The position numbers and the translations under genes are program-made. From Brevibacterium sp. HMSC07C04 (GTDB lineage: Bacteria; Actinomycetota; Actinomycetes; Actinomycetales; Brevibacteriaceae): a stretch of DNA of 64,000 bases. Within the stretch, counting starts at the first letter, position 1; each line of letters begins with the position of its first letter. The notes beneath the pieces are model-generated. The model saw nothing but the letters and a program-made list of their open reading frames with translations, ran no database searches and was not told the DNA's origin. The stretch is from positions 78,038 through 142,037 of the forward strand of contig NZ_KV823244.1 in the NCBI RefSeq assembly GCF_001815905.1, given 5' to 3'. Shown here in pieces: positions 151 through 20,054 of the stretch.

Positions 151-215
151 CCCTCGGCTCCTCGTTTCAGCCGCGGCCTTGAATACAAGCCGCGGCTGAA
201 ACGAGAAGCCGAGGG
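151..215. repeat. Long near-perfect inverted repeat (hairpin)
   Basis: Arms of 27 bp at 151-177 and 189-215 are reverse complements with a single difference, which would be a G-U pair in RNA; the loop is 11 nt. The stem is longer than a usual terminator and has no T-tract on either side. It lies about 37 nt downstream of the stop of the truncated minus-strand fragment at 252-429, so a terminator role is possible. An element end or recombination site is the alternative. Confidence 0.6.
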
Positions 216-251: not shown

Positions 252-429
252 TCAGTCTTCTTCGGTGAGCGTGAGCGAAAGCCAGTCGGCAATTTCGTTG
301 CGTAGCTGCTCATCAGTCGGCAGCGGGCCGAACAACATCAGCTTCAGCGTCTCGAGCCAATAGGTGAATCTGTAGTTCGCCGTGACGTATGCGCCCGAAG
401 AGTACCCGCTGGGGAAATCCGCGCTTGGA
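252..429 (-). pseudogene. C-terminal fragment of a small unknown protein (diverged copy of the gene at 7297-7578)
   Basis: The minus-strand reading gives about 58 residues that include FPSGYSSGAYVTANYRFTYW and GPLPTDEQLRNEIADWLS and end EED. These match the C-terminal two thirds of the intact 93-residue protein at 7297-7578, with scattered substitutions. The N-terminal third is missing: at about 430 the similarity jumps directly to the oxygenase fragment, whereas the intact copy has the rest of the gene plus a spacer there. Function unknown. It is a decayed duplicate, not a functional gene. Confidence 0.75.
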
Positions 430-450
430 CAGACACCTCCTCCGCGCCGC

Positions 451-642
451 TCACTGCGTTCCGATCAGGTGCGGGTAGTGGCGTTCGGCGACGTTCGGGT
501 GGTTGCGCAGGCGTGAGGCGAACGCGTTGTCGCCGTACACGGTGTGCAGCACGTCGAGCTCATCAATCGAAACCCCGCGGGCTTCCGATGCGAGTTCCGG
601 CGGCAGCTTTACAGCCGGAAGCTGTGCGCGCAGAGCCGTTGC
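451..642 (-). pseudogene. C-terminal fragment of a 2-oxoglutarate/Fe(II) oxygenase
   Basis: The last 58 or so residues, from AQLPAV to IGTQ, align without gaps to the C-terminus of the complete oxygenase at 7776-8780, with eight differences by eye. Similarity stops near 642. There the opposite strand becomes a recognisable relaxase sequence (residues AGFDLTFSPPESVSALW), so the fragment ends at a recombination joint. The catalytic HxD...H residues are absent and it cannot be active. Confidence 0.8.
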
Positions 643-3429
643 AGGGTTCGACTTGACGTTCTCCCCGCCCGAGTCGGTCAGCGCGCTCTGGAGCGTGGCC
701 GATGCGGGCACGCAAACGCTGATCGCGCAGATGCCGATCGTGGGCGTGATCGCCACAGTATTCGACCATTACGACAGCATAGCGGCAGACCCGCAACTAC
801 ATACGCACGTCGTGGTATCAAACAAGGCCCAGGGCGAGGATGGACGCTGGCGCACCCTCGACTCTCGCCGACTGCACAAGGCGGCTGTCGTTCTCTCGGA
901 GTTGGACAACGCCTTCGCCACCGACCACACCGCGCGGCTGCTCGGCGTGACCTGGACGGCGGTCGACCGTGGGAAAGACCGAAACACCGGGTGGGAGATC
1001 GAGGGCGTTCCGGCGGCGTTGATCGCGGAGTTCTCGCGTCGCACCACCGGAAGCATCGACGGAGTGGTGGGAATCGAGCAGGTCAAGAACCGGCCGATCG
1101 AGCAGTACGTCGCTGAGCACGGGCGGCGACCCTCAGCGGCGACGATTGCGAAGCTCCGGCAGCAGGCGGCCTTGGAAACGAGGCCCGAGAAAGAACTGCA
1201 CTCGCTGGCCGACTTCACCGCCGACTGGCGTGCGTGGGCCGAGGTCGTGCTCGGCGAGGACGCTCCCGCTTGGGCGCAGCATCTGCTCGACCGGGGTGTG
1301 ACCGAAGCCCGGCTACGTGCGGACGATCTCGAGCTGCAGCAGATCGAGGATCTCGCCTCCGTGGTGCTGATCGATGTGGCGAACTCGCGTGCAACCTGGA
1401 GGCGATGGAACCTGCATGCTGAGACGATATGGCAGCTCATGGGCGTCCGGTTCGCGACTCCCGACGACCGAGTCCGAGTGCTCGATCAGATCGTCGCGCA
1501 AGCGGAAGCCGAATCGCTCCGGATCACCCCGGACTACGACCGGGCCGTGCCAGCCCACTACATTGTTGGCGAGGGCAACAGGTTCCAGCCGGTCGATCAG
1601 ACCGCCTACTCGAGCCAAGACATCCTCGACGCCGAGCAGCGCCTACTCACGCACCGCCAGCGCATTGGCGGGCCAGCTCTGACGGTGCGGCTCGTCGCGC
1701 GGCATACCTTCCGCAAGATCCGGGGCGTCCAGCTCGACCCCGACCAGACCGTCGCCATCACCCGCATCGCCCGCTCCGGGCTCACCCTCGATATGCTCAT
1801 CGGCCCCGCAGGTTCCGGCAAAACCACCGCACTCCGCGCGCTCCATCACGTATGGACAGCAGCGCACGGGCGCGAATCAGTGATCGGCCTCGCACCGTCG
1901 GCGGCGGCCGCCGAAGTGCTGAGCGACTCGCTCGCTGTCCGGGCGGAGAACACCGCGAAAGTCCGCTACGAACACCACTACGGGCGCTGGAACCTCGCAA
2001 CCGGGCAGCTCGTGCTCGTTGATGTGTCCTCCCTCGCCGGAACCCTCGCGCTCAATCGCATCGCCGAGCACGCCGCCGCGGTCGGAGCCAAGGTCGTCCT
2101 CATCGGCGACTGGGCGCAACTCTCGGCGATGGAGACCGGCGGGGCGTTCGGGATGCTCGTCCGCCACCGCGATCAGGTTCCCGAACTCACTGATGTGCGG
2201 CGCTTCGCCAACGAGTGGGAGAAGACCGCCAGCCTCGGCCTGCGGCACGGAAACACGGATGCGCCCGACGAGTACCAGGCGCGGGGCAGGCTCCTCGACA
2301 GCGACGCCGAGACGATGCTCGATGCGATCTACGAGGCATGGCGCACCGACTGTGACGAGGGGCTGCGCACGCTGATGATCGCGGGCATAGGTGAGATGGT
2401 CGCCCAGCTCAACGAATGCGCCCGCGCTGACCTGATCGAAGCCGGACAAGTTGAGGCAGACGGCCTGCATCTGCACAATGGCACCACCGCAAGCGTCGGC
2501 GATCTCGCCGTCACCCGGCTCATCGACCGCCGCCTGAGCACCGGCAGGACGTGGGCCAAGAACAGTGACCGCTGGCAAGTTACCCGCCGCTACGACGACG
2601 GCTCGCTCGCTGTGCGACGCCTAGGGCGCGGCGACCAGCCTTATGGCAAGGCCCTCGTGTTGCCCGCGAAGTACGTACGTGAGGAACTCGAACTCGGCTA
2701 CGCCTCCACGGTTCACCGTGCCCAAGGAGCCCGCGTCGATACCGCGCATGCGCTCATTGACCCGAAGCGTCGTCGCGGGAACTGTTCTATGTGGCGATGA
2801 TGCGCGGCAAGCTCCGCAACCACGCCTACTTGATCGTGCCCGACGCACACGAAATCGAGGCGCATCTCGACCAACCCGAGCCACTGACCGAGACAGATCG
2901 GCTCGCCAAAGTACTCGCCTGAACCGACGCCGACCTCTCCGCCACCGAAACCTTGACGCTCGAGGTAGACCGTCACGCATCGCTGTCCACACTGCTCGCC
3001 GAGTACGACGTGCTCGCCCGCGAAGCACAGACCGACCGCGGGTCCACGCTACTAGATGTCGCACCGTTCCCCGACGACGTGGCCGACAACCTGTTCACCC
3101 GTCCCTATTACGAACGCCTCGAAGCCGTCCTCGCCCGACACGAGGCAACTGGTAATCACGCCGCCGTCGCTCTCACCGCGCTCGCACCGAGGCTCACGCC
3201 TGGCGAGGACCAGGCTGACCCCGCCGCGCAGCTCACCACCATGCTCGACCAAGCCACTCAGAAGCTCCGGCCCGGCAAGCGAGCCAGAGCGCGCGTCGCC
3301 GGACTCATTCCTACACCCGAAGAGCCGATCTTAGACGGCATGTGGGCCGCCCTCGCTCAGCGGCAGGAACTCATCGAGACTGCCGCGCGCCAACTCCTAC
3401 AGGACTCCGAGGACGGGGGAGACGCATGA
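638..3429 (+). pseudogene. traA: Decayed MobF-type conjugative relaxase/helicase (TraA/TrwC family)
   Basis: Intact members nick the transfer origin of a conjugative plasmid or ICE and unwind it. Visible here are the relaxase segments DLTFSPPESVSALW and FDHYDS...DPQLHTHVVV (metal-binding HTH), and the helicase Walker A GPAGSGKTT near 1800. The gene is broken in several ways. The N-terminus with the catalytic tyrosines is missing. The stretch between SALWSVAD and VGVIATVFDHYDS is far shorter than usual, implying an internal deletion. A frameshift near 2765 separates HALIDP from SRELFYVAMMRGKLRN. An in-frame TGA interrupts the reading at about 2919. The C-terminal part then runs to TGA at 3427-3429. 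It is a remnant of the element that probably brought in the neighbouring defence genes. Confidence 0.85.
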
Positions 3430-3640
3430 GTGGCTCAGCACGGGCGACCAAGTTCGCGACCCGAAGGGCGAGAGCGGTGGCAGGCGCACGCCGCCACCAT
3501 CGCGCTCTACAGGCACCGACACAACATCTCGGCCACTTCGCCATTAGGTGGCGACGAAGCTGAGACGACGACTATCGAGATTTCTGAACGCCGTGCGGCT
3601 CACAACGCACTTACTCGCCTCAGGCTGCTCGCCAGGCCAA
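3426..3640 (+). pseudogene. Frameshifted small gene formerly coupled to traA
   Basis: An ATG at 3426 overlaps the traA stop (ATGA) and reads MSGSARATKFAT. The reading then has to shift near 3465 to continue as GRERWQAHAATIALYRHRHN and on to SPLGGDEAETTTIEISERRAAHNAL. The two halves together look like one short protein of the kind that follows traA in actinobacterial mobile elements; that comparison is from memory. The 3' limit is approximate. No further gene is seen before the leader ORF at 3874. Confidence 0.45.
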
Positions 3641-3873: not shown

Positions 3874-3930
3874 ATGAAAGATTTGGCACCTAGCGGCTTC
3901 GATCCTGAAGCCGCTACCCGATCAACATGA
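3874..3930 (+). CDS. 18-residue leader ORF coupled to hamA
   Basis: A strong ribosome-binding site, AAGGAG at 3861-3866, lies 7 nt before ATG 3874. The ORF encodes MKDLAPSGFDPEAATRST and its TGA (3928-3930) overlaps the hamA ATG (3927) as ATGA. hamA has no ribosome-binding site of its own, so its translation probably depends on ribosomes finishing this ORF. A perfect hairpin lies inside the ORF (3891-3916). The frame is also open upstream for over 400 nt, so the alternative is that this is only the tail of a relic reading frame. A TACGAT at 3801-3806 could be a -10 element, but I see no convincing -35. Confidence 0.55.
   Translation: MKDLAPSGFDPEAATRST
3891..3916 (+). promoter_or_regulatory. 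Perfect hairpin inside the leader ORF, just before hamA
   Basis: TAGCGGCTTC at 3891-3900 and GAAGCCGCTA at 3907-3916 are exact reverse complements around a 6-nt loop. The stem covers codons 6 to 14 of the leader ORF and ends 10 nt before the hamA start. It could block hamA initiation unless an elongating ribosome opens it. There is no T-tract, so a terminator is less likely. Confidence 0.6.
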
Positions 3931-4811
3931 CAGGTAGTAACTCAACTCCCGCGACTGTTCTCGAACTTGTAGTCGAGCATGCTGATAAACTGCTGCCAGC
4001 CTCTGTGTTTTGTGCGGGATTCGAGGACGGGGCATGGCGGTCGGAGGATCTGAGCTTCGATCTTGTCGCTTGGGCTGCCGACTGGATTCTTCCAGCGAAA
4101 GAGTTAAGCGGATACAACCATGCGAACGGCGTGGCCCTGCTCGGCAAGGCGTTGAGCCGTGTCTATAAGACCATCGATTATGAGAAGCGCGGTGAGATTG
4201 GCGAATTACTTCTCCACATCATTCTGCGGAAGTTTTTCCTAAGCTCTCGACTCATCTCCAGGATCTATTTCAAGGATGCCGCAAACGATACCGTAAAGGG
4301 ATTCGACTGCGCACACGTAGTCGAGTCGTCTGATGGCGCCGATATCGAGCTTTGGCTTGGAGAATCGAAACTGTATGAGGACAGCTACAATGCAGCGACG
4401 GCAATCCATGACGAGCTCAAATTGCACTTGAGTCGAGACTACTTAAAGTACGAGTTTGCGGCGATCTCTGACAAGATCCCGCAAGATTATCCTCAGCGCG
4501 AGAAGTTAATCAAACTTCTTTCGCGCGAAACTTCGTTGGATCAAACGTTCAAGAGTGTCGTCGTTCCAATCTTTATCTCGTACGACAGCGACGCGGCGGG
4601 CGAACATTTGGAGAACACAGAGGCATACATTGCCGACCTCCAGGCGGAAGTGCAGTCCCACTGGGGCAGCCTGAGCAGAAGATACAGTAAATGGAAGCTT
4701 CCCCGGAAGATTCGAGCACATGTGATCTATTTCCCGATGAGTACTAAGTCCGCACTCACATCTGCATTCGATAGGAGGTTGAAGGGGTGGCAGTCAACTA
4801 CCAAGATTTAA
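3927..4811 (+). CDS. hamA: Hachiman anti-phage protein HamA (DUF1837, PD-(D/E)xK nuclease)
   Basis: The 294-residue protein has the features of the DUF1837/HamA nuclease. A helical segment with E90 and E93 (GEIGELLLHIIL) is followed by GFD (D127) and the ExK signature in LGESKLY (E146, K148), the order of a PD-(D/E)xK active site. In Hachiman systems HamA degrades DNA when released by its helicase partner, shutting down infected cells. It is followed by hamB with a 25-nt overlap, the usual two-gene layout. Translation is probably coupled to the leader ORF at 3874-3930. Base composition is visibly more AT-rich than the housekeeping genes, which fits horizontal acquisition. No frameshift or lost catalytic residue is apparent. 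Confidence 0.88.
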   Translation: MTGSNSTPATVLELVVEHADKLLPASVFCAGFEDGAWRSEDLSFDLVAWAADWILPAKELSGYNHANGVALLGKALSRVYKTIDYEKRGEIGELLLHIILRKFFLSSRLISRIYFKDAANDTVKGFDCAHVVESSDGADIELWLGESKLYEDSYNAATAIHDELKLHLSRDYLKYEFAAISDKIPQDYPQREKLIKLLSRETSLDQTFKSVVVPIFISYDSDAAGEHLENTEAYIADLQAEVQSHWGSLSRRYSKWKLPRKIRAHVIYFPMSTKSALTSAFDRRLKGWQSTTKI

Positions 4812-6928
4812 TTGCCCGCCTACACCAGTCAAATGCGGAACCGTTTCAGTTAATCGCGGACATCGCATCCTTCAGCGCAGTGCATGGTGTGGGTGGCGAG
4901 AGCACTGAACTCGTCATACGCGCGCTTGATCGTTTCGATCGTGACGGTGAATACGGCGAGATCCTCCGAAGCCTGATGATCCAACACGGACTCTACCCCT
5001 ACATCGTCGGCTATTCGAGCGGGGTCGCACTCAGAGACGCCGTCGTTATGGAGATGAACCGTCCGAATGCTAATCGGAAGACCATCTTCCACCGCATCCA
5101 ATCTCAGGTCTTCCATCGCTTAGTCGAGGGAGAGAACGTCATTCTCTCGGCGCCGACTAGCTTCGGCAAGAGCGTGGTGGTCGATGCACTCGTGGAGACT
5201 GGCAACTACCGGAACATCGTCGTGATTGTGCCTACCATTGCTCTTCTAGATGAGACTAGACGTAGGTTGTCGCGGTACGAGGGGTACAAGATTGTCACGC
5301 ACCCGAACCAGGATTTTGAAGACCGGAACATTCTGGTAATGACCCAGGAAAGGTTGCTCGCAGTCCCCACGCTTCCTAACGTCGATCTATTCTTCATTGA
5401 CGAGTTTTATAAGCTTGCCGATGAGAAAGATGGCCTCTTGGATCAAAGGTCATCTATTCTTAACCAAGCTTTTCTGAGACTTATTCGGACGGGAGCACAG
5501 TTCTACTTCGCCGGGCCGGTTGTTGAGGGTCTATCGGACTTGCTGCCCGAGAACTTTAAGGCGTCGTTCATACGTACGAACTTTTCAACTGTGGCCACCG
5601 ATACGATACGGATCGAAGCATCTAATGACGCCGAAAGAATTGCACGTACAGTGGATTTGGTCGGTGCAGAGTGCGAATCGACTCTTGTCTACTGCCAATC
5701 TCCTCAAAAAATTCGTAAGGTTCTCGAAGAGATCATCTCTCTAAGGAGCGTTGGTGTGCAGGCCGCTTCAGGTCTGCCGGAAGCGGCGGCATGGATTGAA
5801 GAGAACTATCACTTGGAATGGATAGTGGCCAAGGCGCTTCGCCTTGGAGTCGGGGTGCATCACGGCAGACTGCCTCGGTGGTTGGCTCAGCGGGTTGTCC
5901 AGGGATTTGAATCGGGCGATCTCGATGTGCTGATTTGTACCAACTCGCTTATAGAGGGTGTCAACACGCGTGCCAAACGAATCATCATCCTTGACCGCAA
6001 CATCGCAAACAGGGCGTACAACTACTTCACCTTTGCCAACATTAAGGGTCGTGTAGGTCGCATGTTCAAGCACTTCGTGGGACAGATATACCTTTTCCAT
6101 GATGAGCCGCGACGAGAGCTACCTAGCATTGACATTCCGGGTGTAACTCAGAGTGAGTCTGCTCCGGGATCGCTTCTCGTGCAGATCGAGGAAGAAGACT
6201 GGAGCGAGCAGACGAGAGATCGTCTGACGCCCGTCCTAGAGGATGCGCGCCTCGATGTGGAGGTCTTGCGCGAGGTTAAGGGGGTTGAGCCGGAGTCGAT
6301 AGCTCGGCTAGCTAACCACCTAAGGACGCTTCCTGTGTCCACGCTCCGGCAGCTTCAGTGGTCAACGTCTTACCCCAATTGGGAAGAGCTGAGCCTCGCT
6401 TGTCAACTGATCTGGGATTACATCGCGCCGGATTACCACGTGGGACATGGGGCCTATAGTGCGCGACAGCTCGCATTCAGAGTCAATCAAGCAGCCCTGG
6501 CGGAAGGGCGCATGAAAGATATCATTGCGAGCTTTGTTGATGACTCAAATGATGATCGTGGGACGGTAGATGACCGTATCGAGGCTGCGTTCGATTTTGT
6601 GAGGTACTGGCTCGACCACAACTTCCCAGCATCGTTGCGTGCACTCGGCGTGATCTCCGGCGCAGTGCTAAGAGAACGGGGCTTGAGCGCCGGTTCTTTC
6701 GATGGTTTTGCTGCACGGGTGGAGAACATGTTCTCTGCTCCTCACCTTGCAACTATTGAAGAGTATGGTCTTCCGCTTGAGGTGTCACGACAGCTTGTGC
6801 GAAGTCTGGGAGGCGCTCAGACGCTCGATGAGATGTTGCGCGCGATTACGTCAGTCGCGGCCCGGGACGTGTCTGCGTTGACGGCTTTCGAGGCATCGCT
6901 GCTGGAGGACTTTGTTGAGTCCCTGTAG
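4787..6928 (+). CDS. hamB: Hachiman anti-phage helicase HamB (superfamily 2)
   Basis: The 713-residue protein is an SF2 DExD/H-type helicase. Walker A is SAPTSFGKS (residues 121-129). Walker B reads FFIDEF (about 202-207) instead of the classical DEAD. The C-terminal RecA-like half has GVNTRAKRIIILD and the arginine-finger motif GRVGRM. HamB is thought to sense damaged or invading DNA and control the HamA nuclease. GTG 4787 is the start because AGGAGG (4773-4778) lies 8 nt upstream; the first 25 nt overlap hamA. The last 200 residues are unassigned. The pairing with a DUF1837 protein is what distinguishes it from a generic helicase. Confidence 0.88.
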   Translation: MAVNYQDLIARLHQSNAEPFQLIADIASFSAVHGVGGESTELVIRALDRFDRDGEYGEILRSLMIQHGLYPYIVGYSSGVALRDAVVMEMNRPNANRKTIFHRIQSQVFHRLVEGENVILSAPTSFGKSVVVDALVETGNYRNIVVIVPTIALLDETRRRLSRYEGYKIVTHPNQDFEDRNILVMTQERLLAVPTLPNVDLFFIDEFYKLADEKDGLLDQRSSILNQAFLRLIRTGAQFYFAGPVVEGLSDLLPENFKASFIRTNFSTVATDTIRIEASNDAERIARTVDLVGAECESTLVYCQSPQKIRKVLEEIISLRSVGVQAASGLPEAAAWIEENYHLEWIVAKALRLGVGVHHGRLPRWLAQRVVQGFESGDLDVLICTNSLIEGVNTRAKRIIILDRNIANRAYNYFTFANIKGRVGRMFKHFVGQIYLFHDEPRRELPSIDIPGVTQSESAPGSLLVQIEEEDWSEQTRDRLTPVLEDARLDVEVLREVKGVEPESIARLANHLRTLPVSTLRQLQWSTSYPNWEELSLACQLIWDYIAPDYHVGHGAYSARQLAFRVNQAALAEGRMKDIIASFVDDSNDDRGTVDDRIEAAFDFVRYWLDHNFPASLRALGVISGAVLRERGLSAGSFDGFAARVENMFSAPHLATIEEYGLPLEVSRQLVRSLGGAQTLDEMLRAITSVAARDVSALTAFEASLLEDFVESL

Positions 6929-7296: not shown

Positions 7297-7578
7297 CTAG
7301 TCGTCTTCTTCGGACAGCGCGAACGACAGCCAATCCGCAATTTCGTCGCGCAGCTGCTCATCAGTTGGCAGGGGGCCGAACAACATCAGCTTCATCGTCT
7401 CGATCCAATAGGTGAATCTGCTGTTCGCCGCGACGTATGCACTCGATGAGTACCCGCTGGGAAACTCCTCGCTCGGGCACGTCAGCCAATGCACGTGCTG
7501 TGTCCGCGGGGTAGCTACCACGCGAAAGCGATGCCCCTCGACTTCGAGGTAGGTGGTGCGGCGTCTGCGGAGCTTCAT
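7297..7578 (-). CDS. Small conserved protein of unknown function (93 aa)
   Basis: The protein starts MKLRRRRTTYLEVEG and ends in an acidic tail SEEDD. It has no membrane segment, signal peptide or recognisable motif. A central block FPSGYSSSAYVAANSRFTYW and the block GPLPTDEQLRDEIADWLS are conserved in the truncated copy at 252-429, so selection has acted on this protein. It lies downstream of the oxygenase gene in both copies, separated here by about 200 bp that hold the 23-bp repeats. I do not recognise it. A role linked to the oxygenase is possible but only by neighbourhood. Confidence 0.6.
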   Translation of the reverse strand: MKLRRRRTTYLEVEGHRFRVVATPRTQHVHWLTCPSEEFPSGYSSSAYVAANSRFTYWIETMKLMLFGPLPTDEQLRDEIADWLSFALSEEDD

Positions 7579-7660
7579 GCATCTCGTTGTATCACGGGCG
7601 ACTTACAACCGACCCGCGCCCGAAATACGACTGCATCCCTATGCGTGAAGACGGCTAACC

Positions 7661-7752
7661 GCCGATTTATCGAGGAGATAACCGTCAACTTATCGGCTCT
7701 ATACCAGGCAATTTATCGGCCTATTAGCCGCCAATTTATCGCCTGGTGCCTG
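7661..7752. repeat. Four tandem 23-bp direct repeats (iteron-like)
   Basis: The core (A)TTATCG recurs at exactly 23-bp spacing: ATTTATCG at 7665-7672, ACTTATCG at 7688-7695, ATTTATCG at 7711-7718 and ATTTATCG at 7734-7741. Each 23-bp unit begins near GCCAATTTATCGGC and the first three end in a TA-rich stretch followed by CC. A weaker fifth unit may precede at 7638-7660. The array is AT-rich against its surroundings and lies in the part missing from the left-hand duplicate. Regular spacing of about two helical turns suggests protein binding on one DNA face, as in plasmid iterons or tandem operators. Confidence 0.7.
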
Positions 7753-7775
7753 AACAGGCACCTCCACATAACCCG

Positions 7776-8780
7776 TCACTGTGCTCCGACGAGGTGGGGG
7801 TAGTGTTTCTCGGTCACATTGGGGTGGCTGCGCAGGCGGGATGCGAAGGCATTGTCGCCGTAGACGGTGTGCAGGACATCGAGTTCGTCGACTGAAACGC
7901 CGCGCGCTTGAGATGCAAGTTCCGGCGGGAGGCTGACGGCAGGCAGCTGTGCGCTCAGTGCTGGGTTGTAGAAGAACGGCACTGAGATCCGGTCCTCACC
8001 GGGCTTGGTCGGCAGCACCCGGTGGAGGGTGGCCTTGAGGTAGCCGTCGGTGGCCACTTCCAGCAGTTTGCCGATGTTGACGACGAACGTGTTCTCAATC
8101 GGCTCGGCATCGATCCACCCATCAGCTGTCAGCACCTGCAGCCCTGAGGTCCCCGGCTGTGGATACAGCAGTGTGAGGGTGCCCGCATCGCGGTGTTCGC
8201 CCACACCCTGCGTGACGGAATCATCAACGGCAGCCGGGTAGTGGACGATCTTGATGAACGATTCGGGCTCATTCGCAAATGCGGGTGCGAAGTGGTCAGC
8301 CGGCTGCCCCAGGCTCAGCGCCCATTCGCGCAGCAGCTTGTCGCCGACCGCTGTGAGCTGTTCAAACCAGCTGTCGGTGATGGTTTTGAGCTCCGGAAGT
8401 GACTCCGGGTACTGATTGGGGCCACGCAGGTTGTCGTAGTCGTGTTCCGGTTCGGCAATGGCGGGACGATCAGCGCCGATGTCGATCTGTTCGCGCCAGT
8501 CGACAACACCTCGGGTGTGTTCACCGCCGGTGCGGGTGTACCCGCGGAAGTGCTTGGAATGTGTGTTCTCAATTGCGAGCTTCTCTTCTTCCGGCAGGTC
8601 GAAGAACTTCTGTGAGACCTCGAGAATCTGTGCGAAGTCCTCAGCGGGTATTCCGTGCCCGGTCAGGTAGAAGAACCCGATTTCGTGTGTGACCCGGCGC
8701 AGATCTTCACGAAACTGCTCGGCTGTTGCAGGATCGTCGGCCAGGCTGAGGTCGAGGATGGGAAGCTGCGTGGTGGTCAT
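7776..8780 (-). CDS. 2-oxoglutarate/Fe(II)-dependent oxygenase, isopenicillin N synthase family
   Basis: This 334-residue protein has the N-terminal DIOX_N segment (LPILDLSLAD...IGFFYLTGHGIP) and the catalytic 2OG-Fe(II) domain: HxD in GEHRDAGTLTLLY, the distal histidine in KATLHRVL and the RxS substrate/2OG arginine in DRISVPFF. Such enzymes hydroxylate or oxidise small molecules; the substrate cannot be deduced. ATG 8780 gives the normal family start (MTTTQLPILDLS), with a GAGG about 9 nt before it; the frame is open further upstream but without family similarity. Its C-terminal 58 residues are duplicated at 451-642. Confidence 0.85.
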   Translation of the reverse strand: MTTTQLPILDLSLADDPATAEQFREDLRRVTHEIGFFYLTGHGIPAEDFAQILEVSQKFFDLPEEEKLAIENTHSKHFRGYTRTGGEHTRGVVDWREQIDIGADRPAIAEPEHDYDNLRGPNQYPESLPELKTITDSWFEQLTAVGDKLLREWALSLGQPADHFAPAFANEPESFIKIVHYPAAVDDSVTQGVGEHRDAGTLTLLYPQPGTSGLQVLTADGWIDAEPIENTFVVNIGKLLEVATDGYLKATLHRVLPTKPGEDRISVPFFYNPALSAQLPAVSLPPELASQARGVSVDELDVLHTVYGDNAFASRLRSHPNVTEKHYPHLVGAQ

Positions 8781-10356: not shown

Positions 10357-11343
10357 CTAATTGTACTGACCGGGTACGTTGGTCAAGCGTGAGAAGGGCG
10401 GCTGGTTCCCGCAAGCGGTGTGGGGCCGGTGGTGGTTGTAGTAGTGCAGCCAGCCGTCGAGTTCTCCGCGGCGTTCGGTCTCGCTGGTGTAGCAGCGGGC
10501 GTAGGCCCAGCCGTCGGCCAGGGTGCGGTGGAAGCGTTCGATCTTCCCGTTGGTCTGCGGCCGATAGGGCCTGGTGCGCTTGTGCCGGATGCCGAGCTCG
10601 TGGCAGGTGTCTCGCCACAGGTGTGAGCGGTACGCGCCGCCGTTGTCGGACAGGACCCGCTCAACGGTCACCCCGCGTGCGTTGAACCACTCGACGGCCC
10701 GAACGAGGACCGCGGTGGCGGTGAGGGCGGTTTCGTCGTCGTGGATCTCGGCGTAGGCGACGCGGGAATGGTCGTCGATGACGGTGTGGACGTAGGCCTT
10801 GCCCATCAACGGGTCGCTGTACTTGTTCTTGGGCTTGCCCGGGGTGGCGGCGCGGTTCTTCTCGCCCTGCTGGCGGCCGACGTAGCGCCAGCCGCCGCCG
10901 TCGGGGATGTTGCCGAGCTTCTTCACGTCGACGTGCAGCATCGCCCCGGGGTGGCCGTGCTCGTAGCGGCGGACCGGCTCCCCGGTTGTCCGGTCGACAT
11001 GCGAAAGCCGGTTCAGGTGCGCGTCGACGAGGATCCGGTGAACCGTCGACGGAGCGATCCCCAGCCGGCAAGCGAGCTGCACGGGTCCTTCTCGAAGACG
11101 GAGACGGAGCTGGATGCAGCGCTTCGTCGTCTTCGCGTTGGTCTTGTTCGGCGAGTGATGCGGCCGTGACGAGCGGTCCTGCATCGACTGGCCGGCGCGA
11201 TAGCGGTCGGCCCAGCGCTTCACAGTGGGCCAGGAAACCTGGAACCGGGCGGCGACCTCGCTGATCGGCCAGCCCTGGTCGACCACGAGCTGGCCGACGA
11301 TCAAGCGGTGGCGCGGGGTCAGTGCTGCGTTGGCGTGGAGCAA
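10357..11343 (-). CDS. IS481-family transposase
   Basis: The 328-residue protein has an N-terminal winged helix-turn-helix pair (SEVAARFQVSWPTVKRWADR) and an integrase-fold DDE domain: first Asp in MLHVDVKKLGNI, second in VLSDNGGAYRS, and the Glu in NGKIERFHRTLADG. This matches IS481 transposases, which move a single-gene element by cut-and-paste-like transposition. The reading frame is intact and full length, so it may still be active. The start is TTG 11343, with AAGGGG upstream. Confidence 0.93.
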   Translation of the reverse strand: MLHANAALTPRHRLIVGQLVVDQGWPISEVAARFQVSWPTVKRWADRYRAGQSMQDRSSRPHHSPNKTNAKTTKRCIQLRLRLREGPVQLACRLGIAPSTVHRILVDAHLNRLSHVDRTTGEPVRRYEHGHPGAMLHVDVKKLGNIPDGGGWRYVGRQQGEKNRAATPGKPKNKYSDPLMGKAYVHTVIDDHSRVAYAEIHDDETALTATAVLVRAVEWFNARGVTVERVLSDNGGAYRSHLWRDTCHELGIRHKRTRPYRPQTNGKIERFHRTLADGWAYARCYTSETERRGELDGWLHYYNHHRPHTACGNQPPFSRLTNVPGQYN

Positions 11344-18941: not shown

Positions 18942-20054
18942 GTGAGCGATCACTACGAAACACTGGGCGTTGAACGAGACGCTTCCGCTGAAGACATCAA
19001 AAAGGCATACCGGAAGCTCGCCCGGAAGCACCACCCGGACGTCAACCCCGGCCACGAAGACGAATTCAAAAAAGTCTCCGTCGCCTACGAAACACTGTCC
19101 GATCCGGACAAGCGACGCCAGTACGACATGGGTGGATCCACCGCTGGCGCTGGCGCTGGCGGCTTCGGCGGTTTCTCCGACCTTTTCGACACCTTCTTCG
19201 GCGGGGGAGGACCACGCCGTTCAGGCCCGCCGAATCAGCGTGTGCGCCCCGGTCGCGACGCCCTCGTGGAACTCACGATCGACCTCGAAACCGCTGTCTT
19301 CGGCGGAAAAGAAGACATCCGCGTGCAGACGGCAGTCACGTGTGAAACCTGCCACGGCGGCGGTGCGCGCGAAGGCACCAAACCCGAAACCTGCGGGCTG
19401 TGCCACGGTGCGGGCACCATTTCGACCGTTCAGCGGACCATCCTGGGTGACATGCGCACCCAACAGGTGTGCAGCAACTGCTCTGGCTACGGCGATGTCA
19501 TCAAAGATCCGTGCAACAGCTGCGGTGGCGAAGGCCGCGTGCGCGAAGAGAAGACTCTGTCAGTCAAAATTCCGGCAGGCGTGCACGACGGCACCCGCAT
19601 CCTGCTGTCCGGCCACGGAGAAGTCGGCCCCGGCGGCGGTCCCGCCGGTGACCTCCACATCGAAGTCACCGTCCGCGAACACGATGTGTTCACTCGCGAC
19701 GGCGACAATCTGCGCGCCGAACTGTCCGTGCCCATGACCACAGCGGCACTCGGCAGCACCGTGACACTCGAAACCTTTGACGGTCCGCGCGAACTGACCA
19801 TCGAACCGGGAACACAGACCGGCACGGTCGAAACCCTGGCAGGGCTCGGTGCGGGCCGCCTGCGCCGAGAAACCCGCGGCGACCTGCTGGTGACGGTCGT
19901 CGTGCAGACGCCCACCAAGCTCACCGGCGAACAGAAGAAGCTCCTCCAGCAGCTCTCAGAAATGCGCGGCGAAGACACCGTTGAGCACGGCCTGGAGACG
20001 AAGTCCAAGAGCGCCTTCAGCCGCTTCCGCGAAAGGTTCGCCCACAAGTCGTGA
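18942..20054 (+). CDS. dnaJ: Chaperone protein DnaJ (type I, Hsp40)
   Basis: The 370-residue cochaperone has the J domain (residues 1-62, HPD at 31-33), a Gly/Phe-rich linker (about 64-95), four zinc-finger CxxC repeats (C134/137, C151/154, C177/180, C191/194) and the C-terminal substrate domains. It stimulates DnaK ATPase and binds unfolded protein. Start is GTG 18942. Being behind hrcA rather than dnaK, it corresponds to the second actinobacterial DnaJ (often called DnaJ2). rsmE overlaps its stop. Confidence 0.96.

What the first reader, a model, noticed from the sequence alone, without database searches (positions are those of the whole stretch)
3927..6928. Intact Hachiman (hamA-hamB) defence locus inside conjugative-element debris
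hamA keeps the D...ExK nuclease residues and hamB its helicase motifs, while the relaxase gene directly upstream is truncated, frameshifted and carries a stop. Selection has apparently kept the defence genes while the carrier decayed. HamB has IDEF in place of the usual DEAD-type box. Hachiman itself is a described system; the family assignment is from known DUF1837 plus helicase pairing.
Basis: partly seen in the sequence, partly recalled or inferred. Interest (0 to 1): 0.72.

Follow-up and report, generated by a model that had tools for sequence, protein, structure and literature searches.

The report
Intact Hachiman genes beside dead relaxase
A Brevibacterium genome carries a complete two-gene anti-virus system of a known type next to the broken remains of a gene for DNA transfer, and related bacteria often keep different anti-virus systems in that same spot.

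Summary
hamA (3927-4811) and hamB (4787-6928) are intact, overlap by 25 nt, and match Hachiman models decisively. HamA keeps D127 and G-E146-x-K148; its predicted fold matches solved HamA. Upstream lies one MobF-type relaxase gene with its 5' end missing, a frameshift and two stops.

Three readings change. (1) The IDEF box is normal: DEFYK is in 85 of 85 relatives (the scan favoured it). This is the short-HamB form, nearest to E. coli AbpB among solved structures, with an unfused, active-looking HamA: a known kind. (2) 'Selection kept the defence genes while the carrier decayed' is not shown: 0 against 3 ORF-breaking lesions in equal lengths gives p = 0.125, and the remnant shows no excess amino-acid change. 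(3) The place may not be accidental. Two other Brevibacterium genomes have hamAB directly behind an intact relaxase of another lineage, and other relatives hold CBASS, SIR2-HerA, Gabija, Mokosh, LmuB or RmrA-type genes there. A defence-cargo slot is the most novel reading; the statistics are weak. No function was tested.

The parts
3927..4811 (+). hamA, 294 aa, DUF1837/HamA nuclease; D127, E146, K148 present
4787..6928 (+). hamB, 713 aa, SF2 (Ski2/Hel308-like) helicase, short AbpB-like form; overlaps hamA by 25 nt
629..3624 (+). remnant of a MobF/TrwC relaxase-helicase gene: 5' end missing, 29-residue in-frame gap, frame change near 2761-2767, stops at 2920 and 3427
3874..3930 (+). possible 18-codon leader ORF behind an AAGGAGAG sequence; its stop overlaps the hamA start (ATGA). 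In the two Brevibacterium relatives the short ORFs end 10 nt before hamA and are unlike it; may be chance
255..636 (+). left bracket: imperfect copies of two stretches from the right (177 nt at 86%, 214 nt at 77%), lying next to the start of the relaxase remnant
7303..7961 (+). right bracket: the corresponding copies at 7303-7479 and 7748-7961, within or at the ends of a 93-aa ORF and a 2OG-Fe(II) oxygenase gene

Best explanation
This is a complete Hachiman locus of the short-HamB, unfused-HamA form, held as cargo at the 3' end of a MobF relaxase gene that has since broken. Shown by sequence and predicted structure: both genes are open, the nuclease and helicase residues are present, and both folds match solved Hachiman proteins. 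Inferred from published work on relatives: HamB binds HamA and holds it in check; damaged DNA or ssDNA ends made during phage replication engage the HamB motor; ATP hydrolysis activates HamA, which degrades phage and host DNA (abortive infection). Also inferred: hamAB arrived as a lower-GC cassette placed behind a relaxase and stayed when the relaxase decayed, recently and by a route not resolved here.
For: Models. Solved relatives: HamB best match AbpB 8zue_B 303.6 bits, long HamB 8vx9_B 39.8 bits; HamB model (pLDDT 88.4) to 8zue_B TM 0.81 by query length, E 9.2e-29; HamA model (pLDDT 88.2) to 8zue_A Z 21.6, 8vx9_A Z 15.8. D/E/K in 77 of 77 unfused HamA, all three in 0 of 8 fused ones. Mechanism from passages of PMC12278908 and PMC10732053. 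Same gene order, lengths and 25-nt overlap in two other Brevibacterium genomes behind an open 1185-aa relaxase gene. hamAB GC 0.51-0.54 in window and W7.2 against 0.65-0.71 for their relaxases.
Against: No activity was tested. HamA found no solved chain by sequence even at E 10; the link is by profile and fold. The nearest solved complex, AbpAB, has a dead HamA domain and a separate Cap4 nuclease (passages), so it is an imperfect guide to this form. Expression is unknown.
Confidence: 0.85

Rival explanations
1. The locus is a fossil in the making: the reading frames are still open only because loss of function was recent, and the pair is silent or unselected.
For: Lesion counts do not separate hamAB from the relaxase (0 against 3, p = 0.125); the relaxase decay looks recent.
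Against: The active-site and helicase motif residues checked are kept, and 67-72% identity to relatives with mostly third-position change shows a history of purifying selection.
Confidence: 0.15
2. It is an AbpAB system rather than Hachiman in the narrow sense.
For: HamB is far closer to AbpB (303.6 bits, 729 aa) than to the long HamB of E. coli (39.8 bits, 1174 aa).
Against: AbpA's defining N-terminal Cap4 nuclease is absent (HamA is 294 aa; PF14130 did not hit), and the HamA active site, broken in all 8 fused forms examined, is present.
Confidence: 0.05

Closest known systems
Hachiman HamAB (E. coli, PDB 8vx9/8vxy; PMC12278908)
   Same: DUF1837 HamA with D-GExK nuclease residues, Ski2-like SF2 helicase HamB, two-gene locus, matching predicted folds
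   Different: HamB is 713 aa against 1174 aa; motif II reads DEFY where the paper gives DEGH; HamB sequence similarity is weak (39.8 bits)
AbpAB (E. coli, PDB 8zue; PMC10732053)
   Same: HamB of nearly the same length with IDEFYK box; best solved relative of both proteins by fold
   Different: AbpA carries an N-terminal Cap4 nuclease and a dead HamA domain; here HamA is unfused and keeps its active site
HamMAB, protease-HamA Hachiman (PMC12799240)
   Same: HamA-HamB core
   Different: No trypsin-like domain on HamA here, and the D-GExK motif is present
hamAB of Brevibacterium sp. W7.2 and S111 (loci L067/L021, L068/L022)
   Same: 72% (HamA) and 67-68% (HamB) identity, same lengths, same 25-nt overlap, directly behind a MobF relaxase gene
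   Different: Their relaxase gene is open and of another lineage (about 50% to the first piece of the window's remnant, against 63-65% for L055-L059). The two loci are near-copies of each other (relaxase 95%), so they count as one case

Membership tests
Hachiman | HamA with DUF1837 domain (PF08878) | tested here: met
   E 2.3e-47, 162.2 bits against a cut-off of 25
Hachiman | D ... GExK nuclease residues in HamA | tested here: met
   D127, G145-E146-S-K148
Hachiman | HamA fold with restriction-endonuclease-like core | tested here: met
   Z 15.8 to 8vx9_A and 21.6 to 8zue_A; next FokI at Z 5.3, which alone would be weak
Hachiman | HamB SF2 helicase with intact motifs | tested here: met
   HamB1 model E 8e-211; motifs; fold match
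Hachiman | adjacent hamA-hamB pair | tested here: met
   25-nt overlap, same strand
Hachiman | HamA-HamB complex that degrades DNA on damage sensing and blocks phage | not testable with these tools
   needs a bench test
AbpAB | Cap4 nuclease fused to the N-terminus of the HamA domain | tested here: not met
   294 aa, only PF08878 above cut-off; PF14130 found in the four Cap4-fused proteins scanned (L063, L064, L065, L141)
AbpAB | AbpB-type short HamB | tested here: met
   303.6 bits to 8zue_B
HamMAB (protease-HamA Hachiman) | trypsin-like domain on HamA | tested here: not met
   no such Pfam hit
MobF/TrwC relaxase (upstream remnant) | TrwC relaxase domain joined to RecD-like helicase | tested here: met
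   PF08751 E 9.1e-42 and PF13604 E 3.8e-50, on a broken gene

The most novel reading that the evidence does not exclude
The 3' end of this MobF relaxase family is a defence-cargo slot across the bacterial order: different immune systems, Hachiman among them, are exchanged behind the relaxase independently of relaxase lineage. The window shows one slot whose carrier gene has died.
Probability: 0.4. Interest if true: 0.55.

Novelty: new member of a known kind. Interest (0 to 1): 0.33.

Why it matters
As a Hachiman locus it is one more member of a well-described family. It is a useful member, because the short-HamB form with an active-looking, unfused HamA is the natural comparison for AbpAB, whose dead HamA domain PMC12278908 calls enigmatic (passage). 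If the relaxase-linked slot holds up, it gives a simple address for finding immune systems, including unknown ones, in these bacteria, and a case in which to watch cargo outlive its carrier.

Tried and rejected
Sequence search of HamA against solved structures found nothing; the fold search replaced it. dN/dS of hamAB against W7.2 could not be computed because silent sites are saturated (pS 0.80-0.83), so only codon-position differences are used. No similarity was found between window and W7.2 in the relaxase-hamA spacer or just downstream of hamB, so no insertion boundary or shared site could be defined. A conserved leader ORF before hamA was considered and dropped: the relatives examined do not share it (17 loci). 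I considered that the direct repeats at 255-636 and 7303-7961 mark a clean insertion; they are only 77-86% alike and the left copy lacks an internal stretch, so I do not claim it. Of four paper searches, 12 and 80 returned mostly unrelated papers.

Weak points of the slot claim. The first set of loci gave the idea. The ten proteins scanned one by one and were picked by eye. In the first set the 5' table lists Old, AriA, BovA and GajA with one member each; I took these as one OLD-like protein (only L173 resembles the GajA of L195), but up to 4 loci are possible, or 6 with mad3. I left methyltransferases (up to 7 members) and mad3 (2) out of the second 5' count, and mad3 (4 members, first set) and the DprA-like genes (4 and 7 members) out of the 3' counts. 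With stricter 5' counts the contrast fades: first set 6 of 22 against 4 of 18, p 0.50; second set 10 of 20 against 6 of 20, p 0.17, and against 11 of 20 with methyltransferases, p 0.74.

Full report
Observation. hamA (3927-4811, 294 aa) and hamB (4787-6928, 713 aa) are open and overlap by 25 nt. PADLOC gives HamA2 E 3.6e-88 and HamB1 E 8e-211. Pfam gives HamA PF08878 E 2.3e-47 for the first, and DEAD E 1.9e-11 plus Helicase_C E 5.3e-08 for the second. No NCBIfam model listed reached its cut-off for either.

Structure. HamA was modelled from 48 sequences (pLDDT 88.2). Foldseek's 3 hits with E at most 0.001 were 8zue_A, 8vxy_A and 8vx9_A, all Hachiman or AbpA chains. VIA-align gives Z 21.6, 13.5 and 15.8 for these, then FokI at 5.3. 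HamB was modelled from 29 sequences (pLDDT 88.4); best match 8zue_B with query TM 0.81, followed by polymerase theta helicase, Hel308 and long HamB chains.

Which Hachiman. By sequence the nearest solved HamB is AbpB (8zue_B, 303.6 bits), not the long HamB (39.8 bits). One scan of genome contigs with a six-sequence alignment gave 253 relatives, best 80 kept. With five loci from plasmids and phages and the window, 86 loci were examined. L145 has no hamA on its contig, and L104's split hamB was left out of the HamB alignment. D127, E146 and K148 are all present in 77 of 77 HamA that I classed as unfused (by length; L108 and L126, which have extra N-terminal length, showed only HamA in Pfam), and not all present in any of 8 fused ones. 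Among the 8, L143 and L144 have identical HamB. Seven fused forms group together on the HamB tree, with L145, whose hamA is unknown; of these, L063, L064, L065 and L141 were scanned and carry Cap4. The eighth, L146 (Colwellia), sits on another branch and has a trypsin-like domain. Loss of the HamA motif in protease fusions and in AbpA is already in print (passages of PMC12799240; PMC12278908). HamB DEFYK is in 85 of 85, but one of the two scan patterns contained IDEFY, so this is partly by construction. The nearest HamB rows are two Brevibacterium (67-68%), then Mycolicibacterium (48%) and Arthrobacter (46-47%).

Rarity. Of 149 related genomes, 76 had some helicase match to HamB, but only the own genome, G052 and G043 matched over the full length. 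A HamA profile hit 8 of 297 genomes of the order at E 1e-10. The patchy spread fits horizontal gain.

Organism. The window lies on contig C16 of a 2.47-Mb genome. Same-genus genomes G052 and G043 have contigs whose lengths equal those of Brevibacterium sp. W7.2 and S111, so the genus is Brevibacterium by that inference.

Carrier. The upstream gene is a MobF/TrwC relaxase-helicase. Of six open Brevibacterium relaxases compared, L055-L059 are nearest to its first piece (63-65%; 53-55% for the second), L021 is at 50% and 38%. Lesions: match begins at residue 138, 29-residue in-frame gap, frame change near 2761-2767, stops at 2920 and 3427, DVSS at helicase motif II. The left end lies next to partial copies of sequence found to the right of hamAB. 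C16 has no PF00589 integrase or TraG-D_C hit; the same genome has an open relaxase gene and an integrase on C27, another integrase on C23, and a TraG-like protein on C51.

Selection. Codon-position differences between the window and W7.2 are 0.22/0.15/0.59 (hamA) and 0.27/0.17/0.63 (hamB): purifying selection over that divergence. The remnant's dN/dS against L055, L057, L058 and L059 is 0.19-0.27, against 0.13-0.34 for four intact pairs; against the distant W7.2 relaxase it is 0.38 and 0.65, with no intact control pair computed at that distance. Three ORF-breaking lesions against none in equal lengths gives p = 0.125.

The slot. In W7.2 and S111, near-copies of each other at this locus, hamA starts 162 nt after the stop of an open 1185-aa relaxase gene. 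That relaxase is about 50% identical to the window's remnant, while hamAB is 67-72% identical, and hamAB has a lower GC than either relaxase. So hamAB and relaxase have different histories. In G046 a 77% relaxase is followed by a DprA-like gene with no hamAB between. Of 85 hamAB loci, 4 hold a match to these relaxases: the two Brevibacterium, Microbacterium dauci (72%, tail to tail with hamAB, L140), and a 31% match to the helicase part in a Rhodovastum plasmid (L062).

First set: 24 Brevibacterium relaxase loci including the window (L153 dropped, contig end). ORFs of at least 200 aa within 6 kb of the 3' end (83 ORFs, 143 kb) matched 144 PADLOC families at E 1e-15, about 34 of them HamA or HamB models by my count; those within 6 kb of the 5' end at 20 loci (87 ORFs, 114 kb) matched 6. 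Named systems on the 3' side: Hachiman at 3 loci, CBASS E1-E2 (L151), PDC-M68B/ABC-3C (L154), SIR2-HerA (L156), Ppl-like (L162): 7 of 24. On the 5' side I count 1 of 20, but the table would allow up to 4. Six loci look empty between relaxase and the far-side markers (my reading).

Second set: 20 near-complete relaxases from 15 genomes of other genera, taken in order of score (Brevibacterium rows skipped; at least six further usable rows were not taken). 3' side: 65 ORFs, 118 kb, 221 families; 5' side: 79 ORFs, 113 kb, 76 families. 3' loci with a system: L185 (PDC-S53), L186, L187, L203 (CBASS), L195 (Gabija), L198 (LmuB), L199 (RmrA), L202 (MkoA), and L188 and L189 by similarity to L199's RmrA: 10 of 20. 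5' side, from the 25 families shown and without methyltransferases and mad3: at least 4 of 20 (HerA/SIR2, BrxL, SduA, GajB). Fisher one-sided p is 0.048, and 0.011 pooled after merging near-duplicates (16 of 42 against 5 of 38), but with fuller 5' counts it rises to 0.08-0.19 pooled. These are exploratory figures; loci are related and choices were made by eye. One further asymmetry needs no PADLOC: a DprA-like gene is among the 3' ORFs at 4 loci of the first set and 7 of the second, and among none of the 79 5' ORFs of the second set.

Print. Searches listed no paper whose title or abstract start describes a defence slot behind this relaxase family; a Brevibacterium mobilome paper, seen in passages only, does not use the word relaxase (PMC6579920). 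The library lacks most subscription journals.

Mechanism. [quoted passage not shown] AbpAB is triggered by phage ssDNA-binding protein on ssDNA or by replication damage (PMC10732053, passages). I infer the same for this pair.

Verdict. An ordinary, probably working Hachiman locus in an informative place.

Noticed in passing
L140 5048-12426 (Microbacterium dauci): A different Hachiman pair (HamB 39% to the window's) lies tail to tail with a MobF relaxase 72% identical to that of Brevibacterium W7.2: apparently an independent placement at the same end of the gene.
   Followed up: partly
L146 4484-5938 (Colwellia): Trypsin-like domain fused to a HamA domain without its active site, on a separate branch from the Cap4-fused forms.
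   Followed up: partly
window 255-636 and 7303-7961: Imperfect direct repeats bracket the relaxase-hamAB stretch; two stretches that overlap by a few nt on the left are about 270 nt apart on the right.
   Followed up: partly
window 151-215; also L023 about 19610-19990, just left of the window: 27-nt arms, 96% complementary, 11 nt apart at 151-215. A separate stretch left of the window matches many scattered places in five related genomes, like a dispersed repeat; whether the two belong together was not tested.
   Followed up: no
window 10357-11343, - strand: Open IS481-family transposase gene.
   Followed up: no
G003 C1:829228-851855: A relaxase gene of the same family is split in two pieces about 19 kb apart.
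   Followed up: no
L061 4401-5579, L188 1839-3038, L189 3804-4982: HTH proteins recur close behind the relaxase; L061's has an IrrE-like domain, and those of L188 and L189 resemble a protein of L199 that matches RmrA models.
   Followed up: partly
L022 5466-6434, L147 4373-5377, L157, L158, and seven loci of L188-L198: A DprA-like gene recurs on the 3' side of the relaxase; the same number of ORFs matches ShosA and PsyrA models, which may only reflect the DprA domain. It and a 126-aa gene without Pfam hit mark the far side of several slots.
   Followed up: partly
L205-L224 (5' sides, second set): Methyltransferase-like ORFs, up to 7 of 79, some matching DruM2 cytosine methylase models, recur upstream of the relaxase, possibly part of the element's backbone.
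   Followed up: no
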